Shown here one piece after another: positions 56,448 through 62,063 of a stretch of 64,000 bases of DNA. The DNA is from Afipia sp. GAS231. GTDB taxonomy: Bacteria > Pseudomonadota > Alphaproteobacteria > Rhizobiales > Xanthobacteraceae. The stretch is taken from the NCBI RefSeq assembly GCF_900103365.1, contig NZ_LT629703.1, positions 2,542,001-2,606,000 on the forward strand, given 5' to 3'. Positions within the stretch are counted from its first letter, which is position 1. Every line of letters starts with the position of its first letter. A program made the position numbers and the translations under genes. The notes beneath the pieces are model-generated. The model did no database searches, was not told the DNA's origin, and saw nothing but the letters and a program-made list of their open reading frames with translations.

Positions 56448-56721
56448 GCTGCTCTCCATGGTGGCCGCAAGCGACAGCATCCTCCCGCCGGGCTCGGATG
56501 GCAACCAAGGCCCGGCGATGTCAGGTCTCGGCAGCGTTAGTGCGATGCAGCGTAACATTCGACACGCGCCGGGGAACAAGTGTTCCGATTGGTAGTTGCC
56601 TAGCAACGAAGCCGGAGTCGACCTTTGATTTACGCCGCCGGACTGGCGGCGGTGTATTTGAGCCGACATCGGTTCTCAAAGCGAAATCATCGAGAGACTT
56701 CAAGATCAGGGACGAAAGCCA

Positions 56722-57406: not shown

Positions 57407-58483
57407 ATGACCAGCCGCCGTGACTTTCTCAAAGGCGGCGCTGCCGCTGGCGTCGTCTTCTGCAGTTGCGGAATGCTGCAAAATGCCAATGCGCAGGCTT
57501 CGCGCCAAAAGCTGCCGGTCATGGTCGGGGTCAAGCGCGTCCGAACCATCGACGTGCATGCGCATTGCGTGATCCCGGAAGCCAGCAAGCTGCTCGGCCC
57601 GCGATCGCCGAACACCGTGCGGGGCGGAGACGAGGTCGCGATCGACGTGGCCAAGCGGTTAGCTGCGATGGACCAGCAAGCCGTCGACATGGAAGTGCTG
57701 TCGATCAATCCCAACTGGTACAACAGGGATCGCGAACTGGCCGGCGAAGTGGTCAAGATCCAGAACGAGAAACTGGCCGAACTGTGCGCGTCGAAATCCG
57801 ACCGGTTTGCCGGCTTCGCCTCCCTGACCCTGCAGGCGCCCGACCTCGCGGTGCAAGAGCTCGAGACCGCGGTCAAGAAGCAGGGACTGAAGGGCGCCGC
57901 GATCGGCGGCAATGTCGATGGCACGGCTTTTTCCGATCCCAGGTTTCACCCGGTCTGGGCCAAGGCCGAAGAGCTCGGCGCATCGCTGTTCATCCATCCG
58001 CAGGGCGTGTCGGAGCTCAACGAGCAAGTGGCCGGCAATGGCTGGCTGTCGAACGCGATCTCCTATCCCGTGGAGACCACGATCGCGCTCTCGCACATGA
58101 TCTTCGAGGGCACGTTCGACAAATTCCCCAAGCTGAAAGTGATCGCGGCCCATGGCGGCGGCTTCCTGCCGTCCTATGCCGACCGGTCGGACCATGCCTG
58201 CCTGGTCAATCCCGGCGGATGCAATCCCGACATCAAGCTAGCGAAGCAACCGACCGAGTACCTCAAGCAGATCTATTTCGACTCCCTGGTGTTCACGCCG
58301 GAGGCGCTGCGCCATCTCGCCGCACAGGTTGGCGTCAGCCAGATCGTGCTCGGCAGCGATTATCCCTTCCCCTGGCAGCTCCAGCCCGTCGACCACATTT
58401 TTGCGTCGGCATCGTTCAGCGACGACGAGAAGGCGGACATGCTGGGGCGCACTGCGGAGAAGCTGCTGAATTTCGGGGCGTGA
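57407..58483 (+). CDS. Tat-exported amidohydrolase (ACMSD-like, amidohydrolase_2)
   Basis: 358 aa from ATG 57407 (MTSRRDFLKGGAAAG); the upstream ATG 57392 would put residues before the twin arginine. The leader ends in VFCSCGMLQNANAQA, with a lipobox-like Cys possible. The TIM barrel has IDVHAHCVIPEA (metal H-x-H), FIHPQGV, AHGGGFLPSYADR and the late aspartate in GSDYPFPWQ. Decarboxylases and hydrolases of the ACMSD group act on cyclic acids. The IS110 pair is inserted 10 bp after its stop. Confidence 0.92.
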   Translation: MTSRRDFLKGGAAAGVVFCSCGMLQNANAQASRQKLPVMVGVKRVRTIDVHAHCVIPEASKLLGPRSPNTVRGGDEVAIDVAKRLAAMDQQAVDMEVLSINPNWYNRDRELAGEVVKIQNEKLAELCASKSDRFAGFASLTLQAPDLAVQELETAVKKQGLKGAAIGGNVDGTAFSDPRFHPVWAKAEELGASLFIHPQGVSELNEQVAGNGWLSNAISYPVETTIALSHMIFEGTFDKFPKLKVIAAHGGGFLPSYADRSDHACLVNPGGCNPDIKLAKQPTEYLKQIYFDSLVFTPEALRHLAAQVGVSQIVLGSDYPFPWQLQPVDHIFASASFSDDEKADMLGRTAEKLLNFGA

Positions 58484-58508
58484 GCCCGACGCGTAGCAAC
58501 CATTAAAG

Positions 58509-59456
58509 CTAAGCATCTTTTTCGATCCACGGGGTACCGCGTTGAACGACGGTGTTGGCGTAGATCAGGAGCTTGCGGGCGCAGGCGATGAGTGCGGCGT
58601 TATGATGCTTTCCGGATGCTATTAGGCGTGCGTAGAGCATGGTGAGGGCCTTGTTCCACCGGAACACTGCTGGGAGGGCTGCCGCGAACAGGGAGCGCCG
58701 CAAGCGAGCTCGGCCGCCGGCGATGTGGCGTTGCCCTTTTTGCTGCCCGCTGTCGTTGTCGAAGGGAGCAAGTCCGGCGAGGGCTGCGGCTTCCTCCCGG
58801 CTCACGCGACCAAGCTCGGGCATACGGATAATGATTGCCAGTGCAGTCCGCTCACCGATTCCAGGAATACTGAGCACCAGATCAAAGCGAGCGGCGAGAT
58901 CGGGGTGAGAGCGTAATTGCTTGGCAATGTAACGAACCTGGGCGAGCCGTCGCGCGTTCCATCGAGCAATTTCGCCAAGAACCATTCGCCGCAACCGAGG
59001 CTCGTGGATATGTTCCAGCCGGGTCTTGAAGCGCCTGAGATCCTCATCGATTTGATCGAGGAAAGTCAGATTTTCAGCCAATTCAGCCAGACGTGAATCT
59101 GGCGTAGTCTTCGGCGGATCGAGCGTTGCTGTGCAAGCCGCGATCAAGACCGCGTCGAGCGCATCGTTCTTGGCGCGGCACAGATGCACCCGGCCAAACG
59201 CCTTGACCTGGATCGGCTGCAGCACCAGCACGGTAAAGCCTGCCTCGCGTAAATGCTCCACCACACCACGTTCATACCCGCCGGTCGCCTCGATGCCGAC
59301 GCGCGTCACGCCGGCCTTGGCTAGGTAACCGGCAAGGGCTCGCCAGCCAGGCAAGACGTTTGCGACCTGCCAACGCTCGGCACGATCGTGAACTGCGATG
59401 TCCAGTTTGGACTTGGACGTATCGATTCCAGCCGTCGTTATGATAATCTGTGTCAT
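58509..59456 (-). CDS. IS110-family transposase A
   Basis: 315 aa from ATG 59456 (MTQIIITTAGIDTSKSKLDIAVHD). The N-terminal RuvC-like DEDD domain has D in GIDTSK, E in IEATGGYERGVVEHL, and two D in AKNDALDAVLIA. The C-terminal Tnp (Transposase_20) domain has IPGIGERTALAIIIRMPELGRVSREEAAALAGLAPFDNDSGQQKGQ and GGRARLRRSLFAAALPAVFRWN, with the candidate serine in DSG. About four fifths identical by eye to transposase B. The longer frame to 60017 is antisense noise through the promoter region. Confidence 0.95.
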   Translation of the reverse strand: MTQIIITTAGIDTSKSKLDIAVHDRAERWQVANVLPGWRALAGYLAKAGVTRVGIEATGGYERGVVEHLREAGFTVLVLQPIQVKAFGRVHLCRAKNDALDAVLIAACTATLDPPKTTPDSRLAELAENLTFLDQIDEDLRRFKTRLEHIHEPRLRRMVLGEIARWNARRLAQVRYIAKQLRSHPDLAARFDLVLSIPGIGERTALAIIIRMPELGRVSREEAAALAGLAPFDNDSGQQKGQRHIAGGRARLRRSLFAAALPAVFRWNKALTMLYARLIASGKHHNAALIACARKLLIYANTVVQRGTPWIEKDA

Positions 59457-59690
59457 CTTCGTCGACCCTGCCTTGTGAAGCGAACCAAGTTGTTCCGGCA
59501 ACCATCCGGGTCCGATGAAGGTGCTGACGACGATCTCGCTACGGAGCAGCCAAAAGTGGCTCTGGATGGGTACGATCCGATCGCCAGCGGCCTGCCGCGG
59601 ATTGCCGTCCGTGGCAGGCCATTCCTTTCGGAACACACCGACAATAATCGATTTTGCTATTACAAGGATGGGTTGAGCACAGCGAAACCC
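59457..59690 (-). ncRNA. predicted bridge RNA of element A
   Basis: The 5' non-coding region of transposase A, which in the IS110 group encodes the bridge (guide) RNA. It carries the hairpin at 59589-59620 on the plus strand (arms GGCCTGCCGCGG and CCGTGGCAGGCC). Compared with element B, one pair is changed on both sides (T-A to C-G, in transcript orientation) and keeps pairing, while the adjacent pair becomes A-C. Its guide loops cannot be assigned by eye. Confidence 0.6.
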
Positions 59691-59714
59691 ATCATCGTCG
59701 CGCACCGGAGTTGA

Positions 59715-59948
59715 TGGGTATCGCTTCGCTCCACCCATCCTTGTAATAGCGAAGTCGACTATCATTGGGATGTTCCGAAAGGAATGGCCTGCCGTGGACG
59801 GCCATCCACGGCAGGCCGCTGGCGATCGGATCGAACCCATCCTGAGCAGTTTGTGGCTGCCCCGTAGCGTGATCGCGCCAGCACCTTCATCGGACCCGGA
59901 TGGTTGCCGGAACAACTTGGTTCGCTTCACAAGGCGGGGTCGACGAAG
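59715..59948 (+). ncRNA. predicted bridge RNA of element B
   Basis: The 5' non-coding region of transposase B. A perfect 12-bp stem (GGCCTGCCGTGG 59786-59797 and CCACGGCAGGCC 59806-59817) with an 8-nt loop matches the one in element A except for a compensatory change. The last 90 bp before the ATG are nearly identical to A and probably hold the right-end guide loop. Confidence 0.6.
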
Positions 59949-60896
59949 ATGACACAGACTATCATAACGACGGCTGGAATCGATACATCCAAGGCCAAAC
60001 TGGACGTTGCTGTTCATGATCGGTCCGAGCGCTGGCGGGTTGCCAATGCTTTACCTGGCTGGCGCGCCTTGGCGGCCAACCTGTCTAAAGCCGGCGTGAC
60101 GCGCGTCGGGATCGAGGCGACGGGCGGCTATGAACGCGGCGTGGTGGAGTATTTGCGCAAGGCGGGCTTCACCGTGCTGGTGCTGCAGCCGGTCCAGGTC
60201 AAGGCTTTTGGCCGGGTGCATCTGCGTCGCGCCAAGAACGATGCGCTCGATGCGTTCTTGATCGCGGCTTGCACAGCGACACTCGATCAGCCGAAGACTG
60301 CGCCAGATCCTCGACTGGCACAACTGGCTGGATATCTGACCTTTCTCGAACAGATCGAGGAAGACATCGCGCGTCACAAGACCCGGCTCGAACATATCGA
60401 CGAACCTGGCCTGCGGCGCATTGTTAACAGCGACATCGTCCGGCTGAAGGCACGACGGGCCGCGCAGATACGCGACATTGCCAAGCGACTTCGCGCCAGT
60501 GACGATCTTGCCATGCGACTCAATCTGGTGCTGAGCATTCCCGGCATCGGAGAACGCACGGCGCTGGCGCTTCTGATCCGCATGCCCGAGCTTGGGCAAG
60601 TCAGCCGCGAGGAAGCTGCAGCCTTGGCCGGCCTGGCTCCCTTCGACGACGACAGCGGAAAACATAAAGGCCTACGTCGCATAGCTGGCGGGCGAAGTCG
60701 CCTACGCCGCTCCCTGTTCGCGGCTGCCCTCCCAGCGGTCTTCCGCTGGAACAAGGCACTCGTCGCGCTCTATGCCCGCCTGACGGCCGCTGGAAAGGCC
60801 CACACCGCAGCGCTCATCGCTTGCGCCCGAAAGCTCCTGATCTACGCCAACACCGTGGTCCAGCGCGGTACGCCGTGGACCGAAAAAGCCGCCTAG
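59949..60896 (+). CDS. IS110-family transposase B
   Basis: 315 aa from ATG 59949 (MTQTIITTAGIDTSKAKLDVAVHD). DEDD residues in GIDTSK, IEATGGYERGVVEYL and AKNDALDAFLIA; Tnp domain IPGIGERTALALLIRMPELGQVSREEAAALAGLAPFDDDSGKHKGL and GGRSRLRRSLFAAALPAVFRWN. It is a full-length sister of transposase A, not a recent copy. Both open frames look intact, so either could be active. Confidence 0.95.
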   Translation: MTQTIITTAGIDTSKAKLDVAVHDRSERWRVANALPGWRALAANLSKAGVTRVGIEATGGYERGVVEYLRKAGFTVLVLQPVQVKAFGRVHLRRAKNDALDAFLIAACTATLDQPKTAPDPRLAQLAGYLTFLEQIEEDIARHKTRLEHIDEPGLRRIVNSDIVRLKARRAAQIRDIAKRLRASDDLAMRLNLVLSIPGIGERTALALLIRMPELGQVSREEAAALAGLAPFDDDSGKHKGLRRIAGGRSRLRRSLFAAALPAVFRWNKALVALYARLTAAGKAHTAALIACARKLLIYANTVVQRGTPWTEKAA

Positions 60897-60979
60897 CTCT
60901 TAATGGTTGCTACGGGCTATCGGCGGCCTGATGCGGCCTGCCGTCGTTGCGAGGCGCCGAAGGGTCGCGCGAGTCTTGA

Positions 60980-61093
60980 TTAGCGACGGAAATTGCGCAG
61001 CAACCGATCGACAAACCACATCACATAGATGGCCACGAACGAGAGAACGAATATTTCGCCGGTAAACAGGAAGGCCTGCTGGGCAACCGTCAT
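60980..61093 (-). CDS. 37-aa single-span membrane protein
   Basis: From ATG 61093, 6 nt after a strong GGAGG site: MTVAQQAFLFTGEIFVLSF-type helix then VAIYVMWFVDRLLRNFRR. One transmembrane helix with a basic C-terminal end, as in many small bacterial membrane proteins. No family recognised. It lies just past the IS110 pair, in sequence that is otherwise repeats. Confidence 0.6.
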   Translation of the reverse strand: MTVAQQAFLFTGEIFVLSFVAIYVMWFVDRLLRNFRR

Positions 61094-61439
61094 GTGTTCC
61101 TCCGCTGCGTTTGCGTTCATTCGCCCGGCTGATACCGGGCGCGCGGCGTTTTGGCCGCGCGGGCATGATGGCCCCCAATCGCCGGCGTCGGGTTGCGATG
61201 GATCAAGTGTTCCGGCTTGCGCGCCGCGGCTAATTTCCTCAACCCAATCAACGCGATTCCACCCGTCCAGCCGTCGCGCGAAAAACATTCCGCTTCCCGC
61301 CGACCCCAAATCACGCCCATAACTCGCGCATCCTTTCCCGCCAGAGGGGCGTCGGCCGTCGTCGCAAACGTTGGGGGAGGTCGCGGTGGACGCGATGGTG
61401 TTGCGCGCAGCAATGTGCGGACGGACGATGCCAGAGCGT

Positions 61440-61745
61440 ACGGTGAAGTCGTGTGGGCCTGACGCCCCGGTGCTGGCGTCAAGTCTCAAAGGAAGCAAAC
61501 GCTTCCCAGGGATGACGGTGGCAAGAAAGCCGGTCGCCGGGGCGAACTCGTATAAGCCGTAAAGCCATTGCGCAGGGAAGGCCGGTGTGATTCCGCCAAA
61601 CCTGTATGCTCGTGCGCGTCCACTATCACCTATTGCGCGCGAGACCGCGGGTGCGGCGAGCACCCGGTCTTCCCTGCGCCCTCTGATTTTCGGTGGGCAA
61701 GATTTCCAGCAAAACTCCGGGTGCATCGCGCCGCGAGAATGCGGA
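61440..61745. repeat. long dispersed-repeat region (Bradyrhizobium type)
   Basis: It holds GTGGGCCTGACGCCC-GGTGCTGGCGTCAAG, then GCGCAGGGAAGGCCGG with the inverted CCGGTCTTCCCTGCGCCCTC further on, and GAGACCGCGGGTGC/GCACCCGG arms. From memory this block, with variations, is spread over Bradyrhizobium genomes. The minus-strand frames through it and the adjacent 61117-61440 region are probably spurious. Confidence 0.65.
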
Positions 61746-61762
61746 CCCACATTCGGTTGTCA

Positions 61763-61857
61763 TCGCCCGGCTTGACCGGGCGATCCAGTATTCCAGAGAC
61801 GTTGATGATTGAATCGATAAGCCGCGGCGTACTGGATCGCCCGGTCAAGCCGGGCGA
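61763..61857. repeat. perfect 28-bp inverted repeat with 39-bp centre
   Basis: Arms 61763-61790 and 61830-61857 are exact inverse complements and each is itself a hairpin (TCGCCCGG...CCGGGCGA). It is the form of a rhizobial intergenic palindromic element. No gene overlaps it. Confidence 0.9.
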
Positions 61858-62063
61858 CGAAAGCATGAAATTGCCCACCCGCCCCGCCCGCCTCCGGTAT
61901 CCGGGGATGCCGATCGACCGACCCAAAATGATTGAACCATTTTGCCCGATCAGGGCTTGCCCCCTACAGAAGTAGGCAATTCTTCATCTGGATCGCGCCG
62001 CTTGGTTGCGCTATCTTTTATCCAACCGGTTAAAAACCCCGGGCAAATTCAAGGGAGGACTAC

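What the first reader, a model, noticed from the sequence alone, without database searches (positions are those of the whole stretch)
58493..60915. Head-to-head IS110 pair with predicted bridge RNAs that covary
Two diverged IS110 elements point away from each other. Their 5' regions share a hairpin in which a T-A pair in B is a C-G pair in A, keeping pairing. The IS110 family uses a bridge RNA, made from this region, to choose target and donor DNA. Two elements with different guides at one site, joined at an inverted repeat, could act together or target each other.
Basis: partly seen in the sequence, partly recalled or inferred. Interest (0 to 1): 0.75.

Follow-up and report, generated by a model that had tools for sequence, protein, structure and literature searches.

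The report
Two jumping genes share one palindrome
Two related RNA-guided jumping genes carry the same address label and have each landed in one half of a mirror-image repeat, so they sit back to back; this looks like an ordinary case of a recently discovered kind of mobile element, not a joint machine.

Summary
The pair is real. Window 58497-59664 (minus, A) and 59742-60909 (plus, B) are two IS110-group elements with intact genes, 82% alike, whose 5' ends face a 77-bp host REP palindrome (59665-59741). Each left end holds a predicted IS621-type bridge RNA; a covariance model trained on other genomes finds eight in this genome, at the four A and four B copies. The hairpin covaries over 42 left ends (38 from other genomes). 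Both carry left target guide ACCCAUCC, right target guide CGUAG, and the same donor guides and ends, and both match the REP half-site ACCCATC-CT-ACG. As the REP is a palindrome, one guide addresses both arms in mirror orientation; that alone gives the head-to-head layout and the outer inverted repeat. A second A/B pair sits in a different REP with other flanks, so the pair arose twice and did not move as a unit. Two double sites among about 12 REP pairs is within chance (P about 0.1). In relatives the guide changed repeatedly between REP 'dialects' and the target changed with it. New member of a known kind; modest interest.

The parts
58492..58496 (-). outer REP remnant CGTAG (core CT plus right target ACG, read on the minus strand) at the right end of element A
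58497..59664 (-). IS110-group element A (1168 bp plus one copy of the CT core)
   Evidence: ends from flank comparison of the A copies and empty REPs
58509..59456 (-). transposase gene of A (315 aa from ATG 59456; DEDD_Tnp_IS110 + Transposase_20; D, E, D..D and SG motifs present)
   Evidence: residue roles from PMC11208158
59521..59633 (-). predicted bridge RNA of A, 5' stem-loop and target-binding loop
   Evidence: model R1, 107.2 bits, E 2.3e-21, trained without this genome
59564..59571 (-). left target guide of A, ACCCAUCC
59539..59543 (-). right target guide of A, CGUAG
59498..59505 (-). left donor guide of A, AUGGUUGC (matches right element end AATGGTTG-CT)
59472..59476 (-). right donor guide of A, ACAAG (complements CT-TGT at the left element end)
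59589..59620 (-).
59665..59741 (.). host REP palindrome (REP pair) whose two arms hold the insertion points of A and B; includes both inner CT cores
   Evidence: dispersed repeat in the genome
59742..60909 (+). IS110-group element B (1168 bp plus one copy of the CT core)
59773..59884 (+). predicted bridge RNA of B, 5' stem-loop and target-binding loop
   Evidence: model R1, 110.3 bits, E 5e-22
59786..59817 (+). 5' stem-loop of B
59835..59843 (+). left target guide of B, ACCCAUCCU (identical to the seven left-target bases plus the CT core)
59863..59867 (+). right target guide of B, CGUAG
59900..59907 (+). left donor guide of B, AUGGUUGC
59929..59933 (+). right donor guide of B, ACAAG
59949..60896 (+). 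transposase gene of B (315 aa from ATG 59949; same domains and motifs as A)
60910..60914 (+). outer REP remnant CTACG at the right end of B

Best explanation
Two separate lineages of REP-targeting IS110-group elements, each using a bridge RNA with the same target guides, inserted independently into the two mirror-image arms of one host REP palindrome. Shown by sequence: same guides, same CT core, same point in both arms, host REP between them, a second pair in a different REP, and guide-target covariation in relatives. Inferred from IS621: the bridge RNA is transcribed mainly from the excised circle, where the right end supplies a -35-like TTGCTT 17 bp from the -10 box in the left end; it pairs with ACCCATC-CT-ACG, and the recombinase joins circle and target at CT. 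As one guide fits each arm in opposite orientation, two insertions give a head-to-head pair with an inverted repeat as a by-product. Because ends and guides are shared, A and B could probably move each other in trans; that was not tested.
For: Genome: four A and four B copies, none with a stop inside, in six places; two places are A/B pairs. Between the two pairs A has no difference, B has 15 (8 in its left end, 7 in the gene) and the 77-bp REP has 16 differing columns, indels included (places); the outer flanks are unrelated. The four single copies sit in REPs: two with the other arm of the same REP class intact, one in a half REP, one in an ACCCACC-type REP. Guides equal the seven left-target bases in 51 of 66 sites; guide position 1 (A/G) and position 6 (U/C) track the target (34/1 against 1/29; 22/8 against 0/36; Fisher 3e-16 and 3e-11, rows not independent). 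Of the 17 non-identical cells 10 are G.U wobbles: 8 at position 6, one at 5, one at 1. On the best transposase tree (53 rows) the guide changes 8 times; starred branches alone force at least 5 changes of the GCCCACC label. In independent pairs on starred branches the target followed in a mean of 3.8 of 4 (position 6) and 4.8 of 5 (position 1), never the other way. Structure. Model R1 gives eight matches genome-wide at E<=0.001, the eight elements (150 of 11467 first-look candidates were scored). Transposase of B related to IS621 and ISCro4.
Against: No RNA or transposition data. Single-strand fold energies are only mildly better than shuffles (z -1.89 and -2.20). A's left target guide mismatches the second core base (CCA for CCT), and both left donor guides are followed by C where the donor core has T. 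B at 6130173 sits in an ACCCACC-type REP, one wobble off; L022 (70% identical) sits at GGTCATC, three mismatches; none of the 4 ACCCGCC guides has an identical target (counts). L033 has a guide that reads GCCACCC against target GCCCACC and fell out of the count by the motif filter. The independent-pair sign tests are too few to reach p<0.05. The related genome with 92% identical flank lacks the REP altogether, so no clean empty site was found.
Confidence: 0.92

Rival explanations
1. The pair is one composite mobile unit bounded by the 15-bp outer inverted repeat and moves as a block.
For: Two A/B pairs in the same relative order in one genome; perfect outer repeat.
Against: The REPs inside the two pairs differ in 16 alignment columns, indels included, while A is identical; A and B also occur alone; the outer repeat is REP target plus the shared right end, and single copies end the same way; a unit with two right ends lacks the RE-LE junction that IS110 insertion needs (IS621 knowledge, PMC11208160).
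Confidence: 0.03
2. The pair works as an RNA-guided invertible switch, as Piv does: recombination between A's left junction and B's right junction would invert B plus REP and create a chromosomal RE-LE junction with a promoter.
For: The junctions carry the same core, guides and ends in inverted order; the invertase Piv belongs to the IS110 family (passage in PMC1525189).
Against: The exact RE-LE junction AATGGTTGCTTGTAATAG occurs in 0 of 265 genus genomes; double sites with this left end were found in 1 of 391 family genomes only, this one; so no conservation that would suggest a function.
Confidence: 0.04
3. A recent inverted duplication of one element, later diverged.
For: Large inverted repeat.
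Against: A and B are not nearest relatives on the tree: B groups with elements of other genomes, several with other guides (SH-aLRT 96), to the exclusion of A; both occur singly elsewhere at 98-100% identity.
Confidence: 0.02

Closest known systems
IS621 (IS110 group, Escherichia coli; bridge RNA)
   Same: Recombinase domains, 5' stem-loop plus target loop plus donor loop upstream of the gene, CT core, insertion into REP sequences, right target starting with AC (passages of PMC11208160; own data)
   Different: Host REP and left target (ACCCATC here, ATCGGGC encoded by IS621); transposase only remotely similar (E 7.4e-23)
ISPpu9 and ISPpu10 (Pseudomonas putida, IS110)
   Same: Two different IS110 elements in one genome that insert at the same position of the same REP (passage in PMC1525189)
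   Different: No double-occupied REP is mentioned in the passages I saw; host and sequences differ
ISCro4 (solved structure 9t56)
   Same: Closest solved relative of B by sequence (E 7e-24)
   Different: Its host and target were not examined

Membership tests
IS110 group of the IS110 family (IS621 type) | DEDD RuvC domain plus Transposase_20 domain with catalytic serine | tested here: met
   PF01548 and PF02371 above cut-off in both; motifs GIDTSK, IEATGGYE, KNDALDA, DSG present in both, aligned with ISCro4 for B; roles of D11, E60, D102, D105, S241 of IS621 from passages of PMC11208158
IS110 group of the IS110 family (IS621 type) | long non-coding left end before the gene, short right end | tested here: met
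   207 bp left of the ATG, 13 bp between stop and core in B (coordinates)
IS110 group of the IS110 family (IS621 type) | bridge RNA with 5' stem-loop, target loop and donor loop | tested here: met
   covariation in stem-loop and target stem (14 of 44 pairs with both-side changes); weaker for the donor loop: its outer stem (helix 6) has only 66.1% of cells paired, perhaps misaligned between clades, and the free consensus fold does not draw it
IS110 group of the IS110 family (IS621 type) | target guides match the insertion site | tested here: met
   51 of 66 sites exact over seven bases, with covariation
IS110 group of the IS110 family (IS621 type) | donor guides match the element ends | tested here: inconclusive
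   left donor guide 8 nt match, right donor guide 5 nt match; ends vary little in the elements read, so no covariation test was run
IS110 group of the IS110 family (IS621 type) | promoter formed only at the circle junction | tested here: inconclusive
   TTGCTT-17-TATCAT at the B circle (8 of 12 consensus bases) against 6 of 12 when inserted; A 7 against 6; of eight elements scored, L047 shows no contrast (7 and 7) and L050 little (8 and 7)
IS110 group of the IS110 family (IS621 type) | RNA expressed, bound, and guiding recombination | not testable with these tools
   needs experiment
IS1111 group | subterminal inverted repeats of 11-13 bp and long non-coding region downstream of the gene | tested here: not met
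   long region lies upstream, 13 bp downstream; between the first and last 60 bp of each element the longest inverted match is 6 bp (A) and 5 bp (B), one mismatch allowed from 9 bp up
composite transposon | moves as a block | tested here: not met
   two pairs in different REPs

The most novel reading that the evidence does not exclude
Because A and B share target guides, donor guides and ends, each RNP can act on the other. In a doubly filled palindrome this would cause inversion of one element plus the REP instead of excision, building a chromosomal RE-LE junction with a working promoter: an RNA-guided, Piv-like switch that arises whenever two guide-sharing IS110 elements fill one REP.
Probability: 0.05. 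Interest if true: 0.65.

Novelty: new member of a known kind. Interest (0 to 1): 0.33.

Why it matters
It explains a striking head-to-head layout by simple geometry: one RNA guide, a palindromic address, two landings. The wider set is useful as a natural reprogramming series: related elements, most of them from one genus, switch one or two guide bases between REP dialects and the target switches with them, with G.U wobbles apparently tolerated. That gives ready pairs for testing guide rules outside the enterobacteria.

Tried and rejected
Rejected: composite unit, recent inverted duplication, different guides (above). A third double site seemed to exist in G221, but its 4-kb region gave no transposase match and reads as a REP with a few bases like a left end, so I do not count it. 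Rfam gave no match at this place at gathering score; the relaxed search gave two miRNA-type matches to the REP palindrome and a weak CRISPR-repeat match, all below gathering score. The orthologous flank in G035 lacks both REP and elements, so it shows no clean empty REP. The other IS110 types of this genome (36-38% identical) are not among the matches of model R1 at E<=0.001; on 7 of the 22 loci that hold them the best E was 0.043.

Limits: sites were found partly with a pattern that demands CCCAY before the core and partly by homology, and the guide finder demands at most one departure from a REP-like motif, so elements with quite different guides are not sampled. Of 70 rows, four were dropped (L028 chance match; L109, L140, L151 left-end bases without element) leaving 66; the guide of L122 was corrected by hand to TCCCATC; L033 fell out by the motif filter; L019/L048 lack the first bases of the left end and are not in the table. 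Of the 66, 57 had a transposase match and four under 200 aa were left out of the tree, leaving 53. The 193 left-end junctions in 47 of 265 genomes are my hand sum and include such bare ends. The two double-site patterns differ: one search covers both left-end types, only that of A and B. Many draft contigs end near an element, so double sites can be missed there. The 12 REP pairs are my hand pairing of the 30 half-sites. Model R1's genome search scored 150 of 11467 first-look candidates.

Full report
What is there. The window lies at 2542001-2606000 of a 7.58-Mb one-contig genome. The genus is most likely Bradyrhizobium: in two same-genus genomes (G067, G024; loci L019, L020) the printed left and right element regions are identical to those of named Bradyrhizobium records (L048, L049). 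Two transposase genes point outwards, both with the two Pfam domains of the IS110 family; B was compared with solved structures and matches IS621 and ISCro4. They are 81.5% identical as proteins and the elements 82% as DNA; the predicted bridge-RNA stretch is better kept (164 of 179 columns) than gene plus right end (768 of 960).

What lies between them. A 77-bp palindrome, 59665-59741, separates the two left ends. Copies of it without any element occur elsewhere in the genome: 30 half units within three mismatches in all, occupied ones included, which I pair by hand into 12 double units and 6 singles; 13 half-sites read exactly ACCCATCCTACG. The repeat has the form CGTAGGATGGG ... CCCATCCTACG. 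Both elements interrupt it at the same point of each arm, ACCCATC-CT-ACG, so that CT is repeated at both ends of each element. The perfect 15-bp outer repeat is therefore five bases of REP plus the right element end that A and B share.

Guides. [quoted passage not shown] In B the left target guide ACCCAUCCU equals the nine bases of left target plus core, and the right target guide CGUAG complements CTACG. In A the guides are ACCCAUCC and CGUAG, with one mismatch at the second core base. Donor guides AUGGUUGC and ACAAG are the same in both and fit the shared ends. So the two elements have one address, and a palindromic address has two mirror-image places.

Independence of the insertions. The genome holds four A and four B copies: two A/B pairs, two single A, two single B. 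The second pair, 7059227-7061650, differs from the first in 16 alignment columns of the REP, in 8 columns of B's left end and 7 of B's gene, and not at all in A; its outer flanks are unrelated. Each pair must have been formed in its own REP. With A in 3 and B in 3 of 12 double REPs, an overlap of two or more has probability 0.127, and 0.071 if there are 16. No cooperation needs to be assumed. By pattern, double sites occur in this genome and in no other of 265 genus genomes once the false match in G221 is set aside, and, with a pattern for the left end of A and B only, in no other of 391 family genomes; draft assemblies may hide some.

RNA evidence. On 42 distinct left ends (4 from this genome; two, L116 and L122, are truncated) the given structure pairs in 90.7% of cells (shuffled mean 86.0, 0 of 500 as high); 14 pairs have changes on both sides (1 of 500 as high); the covariation score was reached in none; the number of further pair types was no better than shuffles (310 of 500); sliding the partners destroys the signal. 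The structure was derived from B, which favours it in the slid control. The unguided RNAalifold structure agrees on the stem-loop and target stem, but pairs the region of the right target guide differently and does not draw the donor stem. A covariance model of stem-loop and target loop from 31 sequences of other genomes finds B (110.3 bits) and A (107.2 bits) in the window and eight places in the genome at E<=0.001, the eight elements. Five weaker matches up to E 1 in the window are the two hairpins' opposite strands and three other places, the best at 56458-56533 with E 0.002.

Guide and target change together. In 66 sites with a readable guide, 51 guides equal the seven left-target bases: ACCCATC 20 of 28, GCCCACC 28 of 29, ACCCACC 3 of 3, ACCCGCC 0 of 4, and two odd guides 0 of 2. 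Within genome G177 one element has guide and target ACCCATC and two others ACCCACC. Of 17 non-identical cells, 10 are G.U wobbles, 8 of them a guide U facing a target C; a guide C at position 6 never sits at a T target (0 of 36). On the best transposase tree of 53 rows the guide changes 8 times (starred branches alone force at least 5 for the GCCCACC label), and the target follows in independent pairs (means 3.8 of 4 and 4.8 of 5 on starred branches; too few for p<0.05 by the sign test). B groups with elements of other genomes, several bearing other guides, and not with A, so A and B hold the same guide by separate descent or by parallel change; which of the two the tree does not say.

How it most likely works. 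Shown: anatomy, shared guides, target choice, independent insertion. Inferred from IS621: excision as a circle, transcription of the bridge RNA from the junction promoter, pairing with target and donor, recombination at CT. In the circle a TTGCTT box lies 17 bp from TATCAT (B) or TATTGT (A); on insertion the REP replaces the TTG. Chromosomal copies may therefore be nearly silent, which would also count against joint action of the pair; the contrast between circle and inserted form is small in some relatives.

Literature. Passages of PMC1525189 report ISPpu9 and ISPpu10, two IS110 elements that share one REP position. Passages of PMC8450116 describe ISPpu9 in seven REPs. Passages of PMC5082802 describe Br-REP1 and Br-REP2 of Bradyrhizobium; the consensus of Br-REP1 printed there differs from this REP, and I did not see Br-REP2's sequence. 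Passages of PMC11187229 define the IS1111 group by subterminal repeats of 11-13 bp. In my four paper searches (20, 20, 15 and 15 papers listed) no title or abstract start speaks of double-occupied REPs or of IS110 in this REP; only the open-licence library was searched.

Noticed in passing
window 59752-59770 against the B copy of the second pair: Within the first 30 bp of the window B left end, upstream of the modelled bridge RNA and around the -10 box, B differs at 8 places from the second pair's B, while the rest of the element is about 99% alike; the stretch nearly equals that of L131 from another genome. This looks like a mosaic from recombination between elements.
   Followed up: partly
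G000:C1:2024125-2025084 (-) and 2025759-2026697 (+): Another head-to-head IS110 pair in the same genome, of two other types (38% and 36% identical to B), beside other intergenic repeat sequence.
   Followed up: no
L138 (G221), L140, L151, L109: REPs followed by bases like a left end (TTGTATTAGC) but with no readable guide or, in L138, no transposase: remnants of lost elements or a REP extension.
   Followed up: partly
L051 and L052, about 2140-2440: In a Hyphomicrobium record the same element family has partial copies (right end plus C-terminal part) in opposite orientation upstream of full copies.
   Followed up: no
window 61341-61390: By eye, an intergenic repeat that resembles the insertion target of the genome's most numerous IS110 type (13 equal-scoring copies), unoccupied here.
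   Followed up: no
window 58300-62060 against L159: A related genome (G035) with 92% identical upstream flank and matching downstream flank lacks the REP and both elements and has other sequence in the gap.
   Followed up: yes
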